In this document: positions 598 to 5,848 of the stretch, one piece after another
Layout: every line of letters starts with the position of its first letter
How positions within the stretch are numbered: position 1 is the stretch's first letter
NCBI GenBank assembly: GCA_029856375.1
Contig: JAHQWX010000087.1
Span: 1 to 7,189 of the forward strand
DNA length: 7,189 bases
Direction: 5' to 3'
Source: Promethearchaeia archaeon
GTDB lineage: Archaea > Asgardarchaeota > Lokiarchaeia > Sigyniarchaeales > SOKP01
The notes under the pieces: generated by a model
Databases searched by the model: none
Told to the model about the DNA's origin: nothing
Seen by the model: only the letters and a program-made list of their open reading frames with translations
Position numbers and translations under genes: made by a program

Positions 598-1014
598 ATG
601 AGAATTTCAATAGATTGGATAGACCAATTAGGTTTTTCAGCGGATATTAGGCATTTTAAGAATCTATTAATGGACGAGCCAGCTTCTTTTAAGGGGAGCG
701 ATCGAGGACCAAGCCCCGTTGAATATTTATTAACGGGAATTGGGGGGTGTTTGGGTGCTAGCTTTATTTACTGTTGTAAAATTAACGAATTGAAAATAAA
801 ATCGCTCAATATTGTTGTAGATGGAACACTTACGCATAAAGGTCCATACAATTTGCTGCAATTAGATCACATAGATGTAGAGCTGAATGTTAATGAAATA
901 GAAGAGAAATATAAAAAAAAATTAGATAAGTGTATTGGTCTTTTTGAAAGTTATTGTGTTATTTCGAATACTCTTTCAACTGGATTGTCTATTGCAACAA
1001 CTGTGAATTATTAA
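598..1014 (+). CDS. OsmC/Ohr family thiol-dependent (peroxiredoxin-like) protein
   Basis: This 138-residue protein belongs to the OsmC/Ohr fold, whose characterised members reduce organic hydroperoxides with a pair of cysteines. The two family cysteines are visible: Cys51 in TGIGGCLGAS and Cys120 in YCVISNTL, after the conserved block DRGPSPVEYLL (35-45) with Glu42. Three further cysteines (59, 60, 112) are not part of the family motif. Length is typical. It sits in its own unit behind a TATA box and is probably leaderless. It converges on dnaG, and the stop codons overlap by four bases (TTAA at 1011-1014). The split between OsmC, Ohr and the less studied YhfA-like subgroup cannot be made by eye, so peroxidase activity is inferred from the cysteine pair only. 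It could instead be a redox or sulfur-handling protein. Confidence 0.88.
   Translation: MRISIDWIDQLGFSADIRHFKNLLMDEPASFKGSDRGPSPVEYLLTGIGGCLGASFIYCCKINELKIKSLNIVVDGTLTHKGPYNLLQLDHIDVELNVNEIEEKYKKKLDKCIGLFESYCVISNTLSTGLSIATTVNY
913..921 (-). terminator. Possible U-tract terminator for dnaG inside osmC
   Basis: A run of nine A on the plus strand (lysine codons of the OsmC-family gene) reads as nine U in a leftward transcript, about 90 bases after the dnaG stop. It could end dnaG transcription. It may equally be only a lysine-rich stretch. Confidence 0.25.
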
Positions 1015-2266
1015 CTCTTAAAAACGATGATTTGTTTTGGGATTTGCAAATCTTCTTCCGTGTCTATGCAAATAATGGCGTAGATCTTTAAATTTATCGC
1101 TAAAGATAAAAGTCGCTTGCTCAGGATTCCATCTAAAATTAAAAATTTCACATCGGAGTACTCGTTCAATTTTTCGTAAACTTCCGCGGTATCTAACTCA
1201 AAAACTATATTTTGTTTGGAGTTGATACCAAATGCTTTCTTTGTGTTTCTAGAGTTATCTAAGTAGTCTGGAATTTTTGAATGCTTGTCAAGTTTCAATA
1301 TTTTAATCAGGTTTTTGTGTTTATCCTTAAAGAATCTACCCCTTTTCTTAGTTCCGATTTCTTTCTCTTGAATAACGGCTTCTTCAAATTCTGCTTTAGT
1401 GCTTTTTATGATGTCAGCTACTGGTCTTTTGTTTTGTAACGCTTTAATCATTTGTTTTCGCGTTAAATCTTCAACCTCGAATCCATCGGGAGCTCTTGCA
1501 ACATAATCAATGTGAGCAACTTGTAATAATTCGTTGAGAATTATCGTACCGCCGCGGTCTCCGTCTAAAAATGCTGTAACCGGAGTTTTTTTCCTTGATA
1601 TGTCTATGATAGATTTTGGGATTTGAGTGCCCTCAACGGCGATTGTATTCTTAATACCGATTCTTAGCAAATTTAAAACATCTGCGCGACCTTCAACAAT
1701 TATTAAATCTTGACTTTCTTCCATCTCAGGTCCCGCGGGTAAATTATCGGGTCCCCACTTTTGTACTTCACTCACTCTAATATCTTGAGAGATTTGTTCT
1801 TCGATTTCTCTTGGTTCGGGAGTTTTTTCGTCCCACTCTTTTAATAATTCGGTTGCTCTCTCAATAATTTGCTTTCTTTTGTCTTCTCGAATATCGTTTA
1901 TTGCTTCAAGTTTTACACTGGCCGAGCAGGGTCCAACTCTGCTAACGGTTTCGATTGTCGCAGCCAATAGCGCGGTCTCTTTTCTCGTTAGGCTCGAAGG
2001 GATGATAATTTCCCCGCTAGAGACGCCTTCTTCCGCTTCGATTGTTACTTCGATGCGACCGATACGTCCGCTTTTTTGTAGCTCCCTCAAGTCTAAATCA
2101 GACAAAAGACCTTCGGTTTAGACGATATACCGAAGTGGTTATATCATTGTCCGAATATGGCTCCGACGATATCGCTCTTTTCAACAACTCCATTTACTGT
2201 ATAACTAGCAATTATATTGTATTTAGTAGTGAAGCTTGATTCGTGAGTATTATTATCTGGAATAAT
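1011..2266 (-). CDS. dnaG: Archaeal DnaG primase-like protein, reading frame interrupted by a 29-base insert (exon 1 2266-2147, exon 2 2117-1011)
   Basis: Archaeal DnaG is a TOPRIM protein found in the RNA exosome (poly(A)-binding, contacting Csl4) and with reported primase activity. The continuous frame from a TTG at 2105 to 1011 gives 364 residues beginning SDLDLRELQKSGRIGRIEV and lacks the usual N-terminus. That N-terminus is encoded just upstream in another frame (2266-2147): TTKYNIIASYTVNGVVEK then SDIVGAIFGQ. Joining it to 2117 gives GAIFGQ-TEGLLSDLDLREL, the family signature. TOPRIM residues in the 364-residue numbering are Glu138 (VEGRAD) and Asp181/Asp183 (LDGDRGG). The C-terminal domain ends with LDGILSKRLLSLAI, as in relatives. 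With the ATT at 2266 as start the product would be about 408 residues, a normal length. There is no ATG/GTG/TTG in frame in exon 1. The gene is divergent from the GET3-like gene and convergent with osmC. Family identity is very sure; whether 2118-2146 is spliced, bypassed or a mutation is inferred. Confidence 0.9.
2118..2146 (-). other. 29-nt candidate bulge-helix-bulge mRNA intron in dnaG
   Basis: These 29 bases separate the Gln codon CAA of GAIFGQ from the ACC of TEGLL. They begin with TGA in the exon 1 frame and carry two TAA in the exon 2 frame, so neither frame can be read through. Folding by eye: intron bases 2-6 GAUAU pair with 19-23 AUAUC, extended by ACC/GGU. The last GGAC of exon 1 (2152-2149) pairs with GUCU (intron 24-27) as a four-base-pair central helix. 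A three-base bulge AAU lies at the 5' site. A bulge starting AAA lies at the 3' site, five bases wide if exon UUC/GAA closes the outer helix. Cutting after the second bulge base on each side gives CAA|ACC, exactly the join that restores the protein. This is the geometry of archaeal splicing-endonuclease substrates. The 3' bulge is relaxed. Because both sides end in AA, the exact cut could shift by up to two bases without changing the product. Confidence 0.65.
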
Positions 2267-2274
2267 TAATCACA

Positions 2275-2280
2275 CTCCTT
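2275..2280 (-). promoter_or_regulatory. Shine-Dalgarno sequence of dnaG
   Basis: AAGGAG on the minus strand, followed by TGTGAT, closely resembles the complement of the 16S rRNA 3' end. It is eight bases before the ATT at 2266, which is in frame with exon 1. The GTG at 2273 is only one base away and meets TAA after six codons (MINYSR). The site therefore argues for a start near 2266, possibly non-canonical. Confidence 0.5.
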
Positions 2281-2798: not shown

Positions 2799-3833
2799 AT
2801 GATTGAGAAAATTCTTGTTTTCGGTGGGAAAGGTGGTGTAGGAAAAAGTTCTATCAGTAGTGCTACTGCCGTAAAAATATCAGATTTACTTCCGGATAAA
2901 AAAATCCTTTTAATCTCGTTCGATATTGCGCACAATTTAACCGATCTATTTGGAGTTGAAGTTGGAAACGAATTATACCAGATTAAGGATAATCTTTGGG
3001 TAATTGAACCCGATCCTCACATTTACGCAGAAGAATATACCAGAGATTTCGCTGAAAAAGCGAAAAAACTGATGAAAAAAATGCCGCTTGTAAATTTAAT
3101 TCCAAAATTAGAGGAATATATAGACGAGACTTTCAACGCTAATTCAATCCCAGTAGCACTAAAAAACGCCATATTTTTCCAAAAAATTCTTGACGCTGAA
3201 GAAATTAACGATCAAAACTTACAATTCGATATTATAGTATGCGATTTTCCACCAACAGCTAATATGGTAGCCCTTTTCGAGATACCGGAAGATCAGGTAA
3301 AAGGCATTATGAAATACTCTCTCAAAGTCTTCGCGCAAATACGCGGGACGATGAGAAGGATGACAGATGTAGCTTCTAAAATATTGAATCCGTTTGGGCA
3401 AGAAGATCGAGAAGAAAGAAGAGGATTAGCTGATGATCTCCTCTATATGATGAACGAAGTAGAAAAGCGAGGAGAAAGGATTACTGAACTAATAAAAAAT
3501 GTGGGATCGTTAAGGTTGGTGACGATTGCAGAGAAACCATCGTACGAAGAGATAAAAAGGGCTCGTGAATTGACTGAAAAATACATTAAAACAGACGGAG
3601 TTCATGTTAATATGCTTATTCCCGAAGGTGCTGCCGATCATTGCGATTTTTGCAGTATTAAACATGATAAACAAAAAAAATACCTCAAGCAAATAGAGAA
3701 CGACTTTAAAAACTTAAAAATATGGAAATCTCACTCCTTAAGAATCGAGCCAATAGGCTTGGAAGGATTGAGTTCTTTAGCGAACGAAGTTTACGGTGTA
3801 GTAAACGATGTTAATGAAATTTTAAATCCATAA
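2799..3833 (+). CDS. get3: GET3/ArsA-family ATPase (tail-anchored protein targeting type)
   Basis: This 344-residue protein is a single-domain member of the ArsA/GET3 ATPases of the deviant Walker A class. Eukaryotic GET3 is a dimer that carries tail-anchored membrane proteins to the ER; bacterial ArsA is usually a double-length arsenite pump ATPase. Visible features are the P-loop GGKGGVGKSS (9-18) with the intermonomer Lys11, switch I SFDIAHNLTD (40-49) with the likely catalytic Asp42, switch II CDFPPTANMVALF (148-160), and a zinc-type CxxC in DHCDFCSIKHDKQKKYL (Cys282, Cys285), the dimer-zinc motif of GET3. Single length plus CxxC favours GET3 over ArsA. Oddities: switch I has Ile where Pro is usual (DPAHN), and switch II is far from the usual DTAPTGHTLR. 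The central helical region (about 80-225) carries Met-rich segments that could serve a client-binding groove. It has its own promoter, and a small GTPase follows on the same strand after 84 bases. An arsenical role is less likely, since no arsenic genes are nearby. Confidence 0.87.
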   Translation: MIEKILVFGGKGGVGKSSISSATAVKISDLLPDKKILLISFDIAHNLTDLFGVEVGNELYQIKDNLWVIEPDPHIYAEEYTRDFAEKAKKLMKKMPLVNLIPKLEEYIDETFNANSIPVALKNAIFFQKILDAEEINDQNLQFDIIVCDFPPTANMVALFEIPEDQVKGIMKYSLKVFAQIRGTMRRMTDVASKILNPFGQEDREERRGLADDLLYMMNEVEKRGERITELIKNVGSLRLVTIAEKPSYEEIKRARELTEKYIKTDGVHVNMLIPEGAADHCDFCSIKHDKQKKYLKQIENDFKNLKIWKSHSLRIEPIGLEGLSSLANEVYGVVNDVNEILNP

Positions 3834-3917: not shown

Positions 3918-4442
3918 ATGGAATATCAATACAAAATAATACTCATTGGTCCTAGCGCCGTCGGAAAGACAAGTCTTCTTAATAGATTTATACACAATAA
4001 ATTCTCGCAATCTTACAAGCTTACAATAGGTGTGGATTTCATGAATAAAGAGATTACAGTTGGAGATTCGACCCTTAATTTAAATATATGGGATATTGGT
4101 GGTCAAGATCGGTTTAAAGCCGTGCGAAAAAGCTTCTATAGCGGAGCAAGCGGGGCTTTATTAATATTTGACTTAACAAGAGCCTCGACATACGAAGGAG
4201 TTATTGATAAATGGTATCCCGAAATGATGCAGTTCGCGTTGTCCAAAGTTCCGTTTATATTAATAGGAAATAAAAAGGATCTTATCGGAGATGTAGGTCA
4301 AGCGGTTGAGTCAAATATTCCTGAAGAATTTGCAGCAAAAAACGAAAGTATTTACATCGAAACTTCAGCGAAAACTGGAGAAAATGTCGAAGAAGCGTTT
4401 GCAAAACTAGCCCAAAGGATCCTCCCGAATTCTTCTTCTTAA
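3918..4442 (+). CDS. Small GTPase, Rab/Ras-like (Asgard-type)
   Basis: This is a complete 174-residue Ras-superfamily GTPase: G1 GPSAVGKT (11-18), G2 threonine at 36 in KLTIGVDF, G3 WDIGGQDRF (58-66) with catalytic Gln63, G4 NKKD (118-121) and G5 ETSAK (148-152). YKIILIGPSAVGKTSLLNRF and TIGVDF resemble Rab proteins, while WDIGGQ replaces the Rab WDTAGQ and is nearer the Arf-like DxGGQ form. There is no C-terminal cysteine for prenylation (the end is LPNSSS) and no Arf-type N-terminal amphipathic helix, so membrane attachment, if any, must use partners. Expanded families of such GTPases are a known trait of Asgard archaea. Upstream ATGs at 3908 and 3911 stop at once, fixing the start at 3918. 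The gene ends with three TAA codons in a row (4440-4448). It may be cotranscribed with the GET3-like gene 84 bases upstream. Partner and process are unknown. Confidence 0.92.
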   Translation: MEYQYKIILIGPSAVGKTSLLNRFIHNKFSQSYKLTIGVDFMNKEITVGDSTLNLNIWDIGGQDRFKAVRKSFYSGASGALLIFDLTRASTYEGVIDKWYPEMMQFALSKVPFILIGNKKDLIGDVGQAVESNIPEEFAAKNESIYIETSAKTGENVEEAFAKLAQRILPNSSS

Positions 4443-4513: not shown

Positions 4514-4608
4514 TCGAGAAAAATTAGTAAGACTTAATTAATATATCAAATAATTAAAATAATGGAAAATCATCGAGAAAAATTAGAAAGATTTAATATA
4601 AATCAAAA
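4514..4608 (+). repeat. Imperfect direct repeat spanning the 5' end of the MFS gene
   Basis: A segment starting at 4514 (TCGAGAAAAATTAG, then a diverged AAGA.TTAAT...ATCAAA) recurs starting at 4573, 59 bases downstream. The second copy lies inside the coding region (residues 5-17 of the transporter). The first 14 bases are identical, and the following roughly 20 align with a few changes and a two-base gap. Read in the corresponding frame, the upstream copy gives TREKLVRLN then stop, against HREKLERFN in the gene. This suggests a local tandem duplication of the gene's first codons. Confidence 0.5.
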
Positions 4609-5848
4609 GTCGGCCATGGGAACGATAGTCTTATGTATTATGGTCGATGTTTTAGGATATTCGATGATCTTGCCCTTATTGCCGCATATTATTAACGAGG
4701 TTTTTGGGGCGCCTCCTCTTTTAACTGGTATAATAATTGCTTCGAATGCAGCTGCAGCATTTTTATTCGCTCCAATCTGGGGAAAACTAAGCGATATATA
4801 CGGGAGAAAGCCTCTTTTACTAATTTCTCAATTTGGAACTCTTGCTTCTTTCATATTGTTAGGATTATCAAATTCAATTTTTATGATTTTTACATCTAGA
4901 ATCCTTGATGGCGTGTTTGGAGGACAGATCCCTGTAATCCGAGCCTATGTTAACGATATAACGGAAGCAGAAACTCGTTCAACTCAAGTAGGAAAATTTA
5001 CGGCTGTAATGGCTTTCGGTATGATTTTCGGTCCAGCTATCGGCGGAATTGCGGGAAATGTAATTTGGCAAATCCCCCCTTTTATCGCATCAGTGCTCTC
5101 ATCAGTTTCAATTATATTAGTCTTGAGATTCTTAGTCGAAAGTATGCCTAAAGAGCGAATTTTAGAAATAAAGGAAAGAAAAAAGCAAAATATGGAACAG
5201 AGTGGAGATGATAAATCTAATGTCCTTACTAAAGTCGTCGTTCTCCGATTGGGGATGGTATTTCTTATGAATTTTGTCGTCGTTTTATTTAATACGAGCT
5301 TTCCTTATGTCCTTGGGGCTAGATACGGTTTAGCTATTGTCTTTATTGGGTTGTTTGCGGCAACTTCAGGCGTTATTATGATAATCGTAGGTGCTGGTTT
5401 GATGAAACCTTTGAATACTAAATTTGGAGAATCGAAAATGTTTGTTTCAGCAATAATTATTGGAATTAGCGTTTCTTTATTGTATCCGTTCATGATCGAA
5501 GCGTGGTGGTTGTTTATTTTTATATTTCCTTTTGTTTTCTCGAATGTATTTACTCGGACGATTACTCAAACTGCGCTCAGTAAGGCTGTCGAAGAAGATA
5601 AACAAGGAGTTGTGTCAGGTTACGCTTCTAACATGCAATCTATTGGCCAAATTATTGCTCCGATTCTTGCTTATTCATATTTAGATGTAGGAACGATATT
5701 GTTCTTAGGATTAACCGTGGACGCGTATTTTCTTATAGGTATAACTTGCGCTCTATCGATGTCCATACTACTCGTCCTTGGAATAATTGACATTCGAAAA
5801 CATTCAAAGGATTTTTCCAAACCAAAACAATTAGAAACAAAGAATTAA
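4562..5848 (+). CDS. Major facilitator superfamily transporter (DHA1/TetA-like drug:H+ antiporter type)
   Basis: This 428-residue membrane protein has about twelve hydrophobic spans in two groups of six (about 18-40, 53-73, 84-104, 106-130, 147-167, 170-192, then 226-250, 257-280, 292-310, 313-335, 354-375, 387-409). A charged cytoplasmic loop rich in K/E (about 194-223) separates the halves. Motif A is GKLSDIYGRKP (74-84) in loop 2-3. The TM4 signature RILDGVFGGQIP (113-124) and the antiporter motif C GPAIGG (157-162) in TM5 place it with 12-span multidrug/tetracycline-type exporters. The substrate cannot be told from sequence; motif C is known mainly in drug:proton antiporters, so export is inferred. 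The ATG at 4562 follows an AT-rich leader, and the first codons belong to a local direct repeat. It appears to be a separate unit between the GTPase and LuxE-like genes. Confidence 0.9.
   Translation: MENHREKLERFNINQKSAMGTIVLCIMVDVLGYSMILPLLPHIINEVFGAPPLLTGIIIASNAAAAFLFAPIWGKLSDIYGRKPLLLISQFGTLASFILLGLSNSIFMIFTSRILDGVFGGQIPVIRAYVNDITEAETRSTQVGKFTAVMAFGMIFGPAIGGIAGNVIWQIPPFIASVLSSVSIILVLRFLVESMPKERILEIKERKKQNMEQSGDDKSNVLTKVVVLRLGMVFLMNFVVVLFNTSFPYVLGARYGLAIVFIGLFAATSGVIMIIVGAGLMKPLNTKFGESKMFVSAIIIGISVSLLYPFMIEAWWLFIFIFPFVFSNVFTRTITQTALSKAVEEDKQGVVSGYASNMQSIGQIIAPILAYSYLDVGTILFLGLTVDAYFLIGITCALSMSILLVLGIIDIRKHSKDFSKPKQLETKN

What the first reader, a model, noticed from the sequence alone, without database searches (positions are those of the whole stretch)
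2118..2146. A 29-nt bulge-helix-bulge-like intron appears to split archaeal dnaG
Seen directly: exon 1 (to 2147) ends in GAIFGQ and exon 2 (from 2117) begins TEGLLSDLDLREL, which together form the invariant N-terminal block of archaeal DnaG. The 29 bases between them are not a multiple of three, start with TGA in the exon 1 frame and contain two TAA in the exon 2 frame. The RNA can form an inner hairpin, a 4-bp central helix GGAC/GUCU, and bulges AAU and AAA(CC). Known: the archaeal tRNA-splicing endonuclease cuts bulge-helix-bulge structures and also removes introns from some mRNAs (cbf5 in Crenarchaeota). Inference: cuts two bases into each bulge give exactly the frame-restoring join. An intron this short in a protein gene, at a conserved motif, would be unusual.
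Basis: partly seen in the sequence, partly recalled or inferred. Interest (0 to 1): 0.88.

Follow-up and report, generated by a model that had tools for sequence, protein, structure and literature searches.

The report
Spliced mRNA introns in Asgard dnaG
In this Asgard archaeon the gene for the protein DnaG is interrupted by 29 extra bases that are predicted to be cut out of the messenger RNA by the cell's tRNA-splicing enzymes; other Asgard archaea carry such inserts in dnaG at this and three further places, which would make it a second protein gene with this kind of intron beside the one case reported in the papers found.

Summary
dnaG (minus strand) is cut by 29 nt at 2118-2146; removing them restores GAIFGQ|TEGLLSDLDLREL. 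Of 208 Asgard genomes whose dnaG could be judged, 37 carry an insert at one of four positions in the N-terminal block: A (27, the window's), B (8), C (1), D (1). Inserts of 28-43 nt fall in all three frames and share one anatomy: a 4-bp exon-insert helix (3 of 4 pairs at C and in two A genomes), 3-nt bulges, an inner hairpin. Joining between bulge bases 2 and 3 restores the protein each time. At A the exon's wobble base covaries with the insert (19 of 19 distinct inserts pair). The genus encodes catalytic and non-catalytic EndA subunits, RtcB and apparently intron-bearing tRNAs. A public protein from a 1.5-kb contig equals the predicted B product and is 99.7% identical to a truncated protein from a 74-kb contig: a candidate spliced transcript, not proven. 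Many relatives lack the insert exactly, implying gain and loss; cbf5 and radA are uninterrupted in the same family. I read these as EndA/RtcB-spliced pre-mRNA introns. RNA evidence is missing, and simple folding disfavours the splice fold in most full contexts.

The parts
2147..2266 (-). dnaG exon 1 (39-40 codons, ends GAIFGQ); no ATG/GTG/TTG in frame, start probably ATT at 2266-2264 or 2263-2261
   Evidence: translation and in-frame stop TGA at 2272-2270; homology to intronless Lokiarchaeal dnaG
2118..2146 (-). 29-nt BHB-like intron (predicted to be spliced)
   Evidence: same-position inserts in 27 Asgard genomes, exact absence in relatives
2149..2152 (-). central helix, 5' strand GGAC (exonic)
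   Evidence: pairs 4/4 with 2123-2120; 21 of 21 tabulated rows pair; wobble base covaries
2120..2123 (-). central helix, 3' strand GUCU (intronic)
2146..2148 (-). 5' bulge AA^U, predicted cut between 2147 and 2146
   Evidence: position fixed by the protein join in the relatives
2117..2119 (-). 3' bulge AA^A, predicted cut between 2118 and 2117
2124..2145 (-). inner hairpin GAUAUA...UAUAUC
   Evidence: 6 bp run; inner pairs covary across inserts, 91.2% of cells paired
2112..2114 (-). GAA that can pair with UUC 2155-2153 (short outer helix, 5-nt bulge)
   Evidence: helix 1: 100% paired, but both sides are codon-constrained (Phe, Glu), so it is weak evidence
1011..2117 (-). dnaG exon 2, 368 codons plus stop
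   Evidence: NCBIfam NF003108 DnaG, 385 bits, profile positions 27-418 of 419

Best explanation
The 29 bases at 2118-2146 interrupt dnaG exactly between two codons of a conserved block and are predicted to be a BHB-like pre-mRNA intron that the tRNA-splicing endonuclease (EndA) would cut out and RtcB would join. Shown here: the interruption, its exact absence in relatives, same-position inserts in 27 Asgard genomes, the conserved exon-intron pairing, and EndA and RtcB genes in the genus. Inferred: the pre-mRNA folds so that exonic GGNC pairs with intronic GNCY, leaving 3-nt bulges AR^N and (A/T)A^A; a hetero-oligomeric EndA (catalytic EndA-1 with non-catalytic EndA-2) cuts between bulge bases 2 and 3; RtcB seals CAA to ACC. 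Inserts at three other positions (B, C, D) fit the same rule, so dnaG has probably acquired such introns several times and lost them often.
For: Exact junction with and without insert. Site A in 27, B in 8, C in 1, D in 1 of 208 judged Asgard genomes. Central helix 4/4 in 21 of 21 tabulated site A rows, 8 of 8 at B, 1 of 1 at D; 3 of 4 pairs at C and in the 2 f19 rows of A. Wobble base of the Gly codon pairs with the insert in 19 of 19 distinct inserts; 0 of 200,000 permutations reach that. Covariation 0.347 against 0.180 +- 0.019 shuffled, 0 of 500, and 0.017-0.092 when slid. Site B splice product reads TEGLLGEDLDLRELQ in 8 of 8; site D has a 9-bp inner helix and joins to VERPDVVGALFGQTEGLLGEELDLREL. 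PF01974 in 5 of 5 genus genomes, two copies in 4 of 5; EndA-1 matches crystallised tRNA-splicing endonucleases at 2.6e-36, EndA-2 lacks the matching His. RtcB in 5 of 5 (in the own genome only a fragment at a contig end). Third-base A in four-fold codons next to the junction 8.9% in 25 intron-bearing against 33.2% in 30 intronless genes, elsewhere 36.9 and 36.3%. P0173 is continuous across site B and 99.65% identical over 286 aa to the truncated P0154.
Against: No RNA reads were available; P0173 may come from an intronless strain, since the type of its 1524-nt contig and the DNA upstream of P0154 are not visible. With 25 nt of exon on each side the central helix reaches pairing probability 0.5 in only 2 of 19 distinct site A inserts, and 0.00 in the window; the window's free fold sequesters the 3' site. 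In the isolated core a fold with the central helix equals the free minimum in 11 of 19. The outer helix is weak: two further bases are unpaired at site A. Related rows are not independent. Sites C and D rest on one MAG each, and C pairs only 3 of 4. At f19 the join gives Leu for the usual Thr. The top 120 hits with the spliced window protein contain no continuous protein from the window's genus, and no near-identical continuous partner (at most 90% identity) for any of 25 intron-bearing genes tested.
Confidence: 0.92

Rival explanations
1. The ribosome, not a splicing enzyme, skips the insert: programmed bypassing, frameshifting or stop read-through.
For: The insert begins with or holds a stop codon and a hairpin, as in known bypass elements (recalled); RNA splicing was not observed here.
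Against: Take-off codon CAA/CAG never equals the last triplet of the insert (TAA in 20, TTA in 1 of 21 rows). Insert lengths of 29-43 fall in all three frames, so no single frameshift or read-through fits. Site B splits a codon. Covariation between exon wobble base and insert end is not needed by the ribosome.
Confidence: 0.03
2. dnaG is a decayed or split gene: exon 2 alone is made from an internal TTG start and the N-terminal piece is lost or separate.
For: Predicted proteins start downstream (TTG 2105 in the window; P0001, P0002 truncated). Unspliced mRNA could give this product.
Against: Exon 1 up to its last codon and exon 2 from its first codon stay recognisable with synonymous variation in 25 genes (these genes were picked with a motif, so this is partly by construction). 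Same position and fold in genomes of several families; only one dnaG match in the own genome.
Confidence: 0.04
3. The insert is an assembly or sequencing error.
For: The named genomes here are MAGs; sites C and D rest on one genome each.
Against: Same-position inserts in many separate genomes: the same 32 nt in 4 genus members, 29-43 nt elsewhere.
Confidence: 0.005

Closest known systems
BHB pre-mRNA intron of cbf5 in Desulfurococcales and Sulfolobales (PMC2738675: passages and conclusion section seen)
   Same: Short intron in a conserved protein gene, predicted cuts between bases 2 and 3 of the bulges, mostly unconventional BHB, hetero-oligomeric EndA, gain followed by independent losses
   Different: Other gene (dnaG), other phylum (Asgard), four positions, no cDNA yet; cbf5 itself shows no internal stop in 64 of 64 over-cut-off matches in the window's family (65 genomes searched; two run off contig ends)
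Archaeal pre-tRNA BHB introns
   Same: 4-bp central helix with 3-nt bulges; tRNA matches of 92-138 nt, longer than an uninterrupted tRNA, occur in three genomes of the genus
   Different: Here in an open reading frame; outer helix weak
BHB processing site in the 5' UTR of HVO_1309 in Haloferax (PMC7714728, passages)
   Same: EndA acting on an mRNA
   Different: Leader processing, not an intron that interrupts a reading frame
Group I introns of archaea (PMC6125680, start of abstract in search listing)
   Same: Introns reported from archaeal genomes
   Different: Ribozymes; a 28-43 nt insert cannot hold a group I core (recalled size)

Membership tests
BHB (EndA-spliced) archaeal introns | Exact removal restores the mature product | tested here: met
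   Joins restore the conserved DnaG block at all four sites; intronless relatives read directly across; f19 gives Leu for Thr
BHB (EndA-spliced) archaeal introns | 4-bp central helix | tested here: met
   4/4 in 21 of 21 tabulated rows at A, 8 of 8 at B, 1 of 1 at D; 3 of 4 pairs at C and in the two f19 rows; covariation at A
BHB (EndA-spliced) archaeal introns | Two 3-nt bulges, cut between bases 2 and 3 | tested here: met
   Register fixed by the protein join; cutting itself not observed
BHB (EndA-spliced) archaeal introns | Inner and outer flanking helices | tested here: inconclusive
   Inner helix 91.2% paired with covariation; outer 3 bp at A only after two extra unpaired bases and codon-constrained; full-context folds favour other structures
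BHB (EndA-spliced) archaeal introns | Splicing endonuclease and RtcB encoded | tested here: met
   PF01974 in 5/5 and PF01139 in 5/5 genus genomes; PF01974 in 31/31 other Asgard genomes that I picked; RtcB not searched outside the genus
BHB (EndA-spliced) archaeal introns | Spliced RNA observed | not testable with these tools
   Only candidate is protein P0173
Translational bypass elements | Matching take-off and landing codons (recalled) | tested here: not met
   0 of 21 rows
Group I / group II introns | Ribozyme core of a few hundred nt (recalled) | tested here: not met
   Inserts are 28-43 nt

The most novel reading that the evidence does not exclude
The N-terminal block of dnaG is a hotspot where Asgard archaea repeatedly create BHB mRNA introns de novo, for instance by short duplication of a palindromic GGCC-AA stretch that supplies both the central helix and the two bulges, and keep them because splicing sets the dose of full-length DnaG, itself a subunit of the RNA exosome: a self-regulating mRNA splicing circuit in the archaeal relatives of eukaryotes.
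Probability: 0.2. Interest if true: 0.93.

Novelty: new member of a known kind. Interest (0 to 1): 0.82.

Why it matters
A 2020 paper (PMC7714728, passages) still counted cbf5 as the only reported additional BHB intron, in an mRNA, and the 2009 cbf5 paper (PMC2738675, conclusion) mentions only unconfirmed predictions elsewhere. None of my eight paper searches (open-licence papers only) listed one in dnaG or in any Asgard protein gene. If splicing is confirmed, protein-gene introns removed by the tRNA-splicing machinery occur in the archaea closest to eukaryotes, with several positions, gains and losses laid out across dozens of genomes. That makes intron birth and loss by this route testable, and it explains why predicted DnaG proteins of these lineages are cut short in databases (examples).

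Tried and rejected
Programmed bypass, frameshift, read-through, pseudogene and assembly error were weighed and rejected as above. A dispersed or mobile element: covariance model R1 over the 65 genomes of the window's family found only the 23 dnaG site A inserts, one per genome (stricter filters and E <= 0.02, so weak copies could be lost). General gene interruption in this family: cbf5 (over the cut-off in 64 of 65 genomes) and radA (63 of 65) show no internal stop in any over-cut-off match listed (one 24.7-bit row below the cbf5 cut-off, G155, has a TAA and was not followed). Spliced transcripts of the window's own genus: none in the top 120 of the protein search; the nearest, P0108, is 98.7% identical to G093 but truncated. 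A search with residues 1-156 of P0173 for shorter proteins gave no close continuous site-B relative among the 120 listed (best identity 68%). The direct-repeat origin idea is weak: exon end and insert end agree in 1-5 of 6 bases over 19 inserts, and for a palindromic GGCC pairing alone forces likeness. I did not search non-Asgard archaea for dnaG inserts, nor other Asgard genes genome-wide; beyond dnaG only cbf5 and radA were checked in the window's family, and the dnaG query covers about 300 residues.

Full report
What is in the window. The window is one contig (G000:C7) of a genome rated 69.3% complete; close named relatives are labelled Lokiarchaeota or Lokiarchaeia. dnaG lies on the minus strand. 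Exon 2 (1011-2117) is DnaG by NCBIfam NF003108 at 385 bits but lacks the first 26 profile positions. Those are found upstream in another frame, ending GAIFGQ at 2147, with 29 nt in between. The own genome shows one dnaG match only.

Relatives. The search for related loci gave 27 loci; 26 reach the junction. In 20 of these CAA/CAG runs straight into ACN GAR; in 6 an insert of 30-37 nt sits at exactly the same place. I then searched the whole phylum available here: 227 genomes, 209 with a dnaG match. One (G110) is cut by a contig end. Of the 208 that could be judged, 37 are interrupted: site A (FGQ|T) 27, site B (TEGL|L, inside a codon) 8, site C (inside the Ile codon of SDIVG) 1, site D (GIVE|RPD) 1. 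The other 171 are uninterrupted: for 35 I read the junction; for the rest I rely on match tables that run from about residue 1-11 of the query through the block without a stop there. One genome, G151, holds two copies, one with and one without; it is counted as interrupted.

Distribution. In the window's family (f1) 24 of 59 judged genomes are interrupted: 23 at A and G130 at C. The judged genomes of genera g1 (5), g3 (2), g4 (1) and g9 (4) carry A throughout; g7 and g8 are mixed; g2, g5 and g6 have none. Outside f1, A is in f2 (1 of 1), f29 (1 of 1) and f19 (2 of 2), B in f18 (8 of 8), D in f6 (1 of 1); f3 (0 of 6) and f4 (0 of 5) have none. Named homologues of f18 DnaG are labelled Odinarchaeota, Hermodarchaeia, Hodarchaeota and others, inconsistently.

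Anatomy. In 21 of 21 tabulated site A rows (19 distinct inserts, 25 genomes) exonic GGNC pairs 4/4 with bases 6 to 3 from the end of the insert, with bulges AR^N and (A/T)A^A. The exonic wobble base N is A, C, G or T, and the partner in the insert follows it in 19 of 19 (15 Watson-Crick); 0 of 200,000 permutations do as well. On a MAFFT alignment of these 19, not fitted to the structure, 97.4% of cells pair, covariation is 0.347 against 0.180 +- 0.019, and sliding by one to three columns gives 0.017-0.092. Related sequences inflate such tests. The two f19 rows were left out of these counts: they show GGCC with GGCA (3 of 4), bulges AA^U and AA^U, a strong inner stem, and the join Q|LEGLL (read by eye). 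Site B: 8 of 8 have central GYCU/GGGY, bulges AC^A and AA^U (AU^U once), unbroken inner stems of 4-10 bp, and all join to DVVGALFGQTEGLLGEDLDLRELQQS. Site D: GUAG/CUAU, AA^A, AU^A, 9-bp inner helix, 37 nt. Site C: 3 of 4 central pairs, inner 8 of 9, 30 nt with an in-frame TAA.

What speaks against a simple picture. The free fold of the window's 71 nt is not the BHB. With 25 nt of exon on each side the central helix reaches probability 0.5 in 2 of 19; in the isolated core a fold with the central helix equals the free minimum in 11 of 19. The outer helix at A starts only after two further unpaired bases. Kinetic folding or enzyme binding must be assumed.

Selection on the exons. Near the junction four-fold codons end in A in 8.9% of cases in 25 intron-bearing genes and 33.2% in 30 intronless ones, while the rest of the gene gives 36.9 and 36.3%. 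TTC and ACC next to the junction are commoner with the intron (10 of 25 against 2 of 32; 11 of 25 against 2 of 32). Sites B, C (as an intron) and f19 were not in these sets; phylogeny is not corrected for.

Machinery. In the genus, PF01974 is found in 5 of 5 genomes, two paralogues in 4 of 5. EndA-1 matches PDB tRNA-splicing endonucleases (3p1z, 3ajv; the A. pernix enzyme by recall) and keeps the His of the motif DHxPF, which is Ala in 3ajv; EndA-2 has TTEPAKY there. A hetero-oligomeric enzyme is what PMC2738675 (passages) links to the unconventional BHB of cbf5. RtcB is complete in 4 and a contig-end fragment in the window's genome. PF01974 is in 31 of 31 further Asgard genomes that I picked, with two matches or more in 26. 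tRNA matches of 92-138 nt occur in all three genus members scanned; 17 of 20 fetched stretches gave an ARAGORN tRNA when introns were allowed, several with the same anatomy by a scripted search that picks the best fit, so illustrative only.

Gain and loss. A quick LG+G4 tree of 57 DnaG rows puts intron-bearing g1, g4 and g9/g3 outside a crown where intronless clades are nested; 7 changes of the site A label are needed (2 forced by well-supported branches), against 18.8 in shuffles. Ancestral presence in f1 with repeated exact loss is my reading; the tree cannot show direction. G130, labelled intronless for A in that tree, carries site C inside a group lacking A, which looks like a gain. Model R1 finds no second copy elsewhere in f1. 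Control genes cbf5 and radA show no internal stop in the over-cut-off matches listed in the same 65 genomes.

A candidate spliced message. Of the 56 proteins P0121-P0176 that I take as site-B-type (61-94% identity to f18 exon 2), 55 lack the joined block: they begin after the insert, or (19 of them) run through it out of frame as ...AYTS...EG(V/A/F)(I/F)GEDLDLRELQ or close to it, which shows the insert in their DNA. P0173 (source jgi, contig 1524 nt) alone is continuous, ETPDVVGALFGQTEGLLGEDLDLRELQ, and is 99.65% identical over 286 residues to P0154 (contig 74,437 nt), which starts only at the residue matching 64 of P0173. It is a spliced transcript or an intronless strain; I could not see either contig. 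Its last ten residues lie outside the aligned part.

Literature. Searches listed no report of an intron in dnaG or of BHB introns in Asgard protein genes, judged by titles, abstract starts and the passages that I opened. The library holds open-licence papers only. PMC7714728 (passages) names cbf5 as the only other reported BHB intron; PMC2738675 (passages, conclusion) notes unconfirmed predictions in other genes. That aDnaG is an exosome subunit is from the start of the abstract of PMC7667871 in search listings.

Verdict. Observation confirmed, interpretation supported. A new member of a known kind: EndA-type pre-mRNA introns, in a second gene, a new phylum and four positions.

Noticed in passing
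window 2261-2280 (minus): dnaG seems to start at AUU: no ATG/GTG/TTG in frame in the window, its genus mates (L059-L062) or L117; L034 and L036 have an in-frame stop between GTG and ATT; most other genes of the family have an in-frame GTG that overlaps the Shine-Dalgarno-like GGAAGTGAT (2 of 53 loci gave no result)
   Followed up: partly
window 2112-2140 (minus): Insert CUUCGG can pair with exon 2 CCGAAG, an alternative fold that hides the 3' splice site; could be a switch or accident
   Followed up: partly
G151: C40 (L050) and C91 (L076): Two dnaG copies, one with and one without the site A intron; mixed bin or true paralogues
   Followed up: no
L082, L084: In f19 the join gives Leu where the other joined genes have Thr (Q|LEGLL)
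   Followed up: no
window 4562-5848 (+): MFS transporter resembling Tet efflux models but far below their curated cut-offs
   Followed up: no
window 3918-4442 and 2799-3833 (+): Small GTPase and a Get3/ArsA-family ATPase near dnaG
   Followed up: no
L188-L190: f13 DnaG has a roughly 15-residue insertion in a later linker, open in frame
   Followed up: partly
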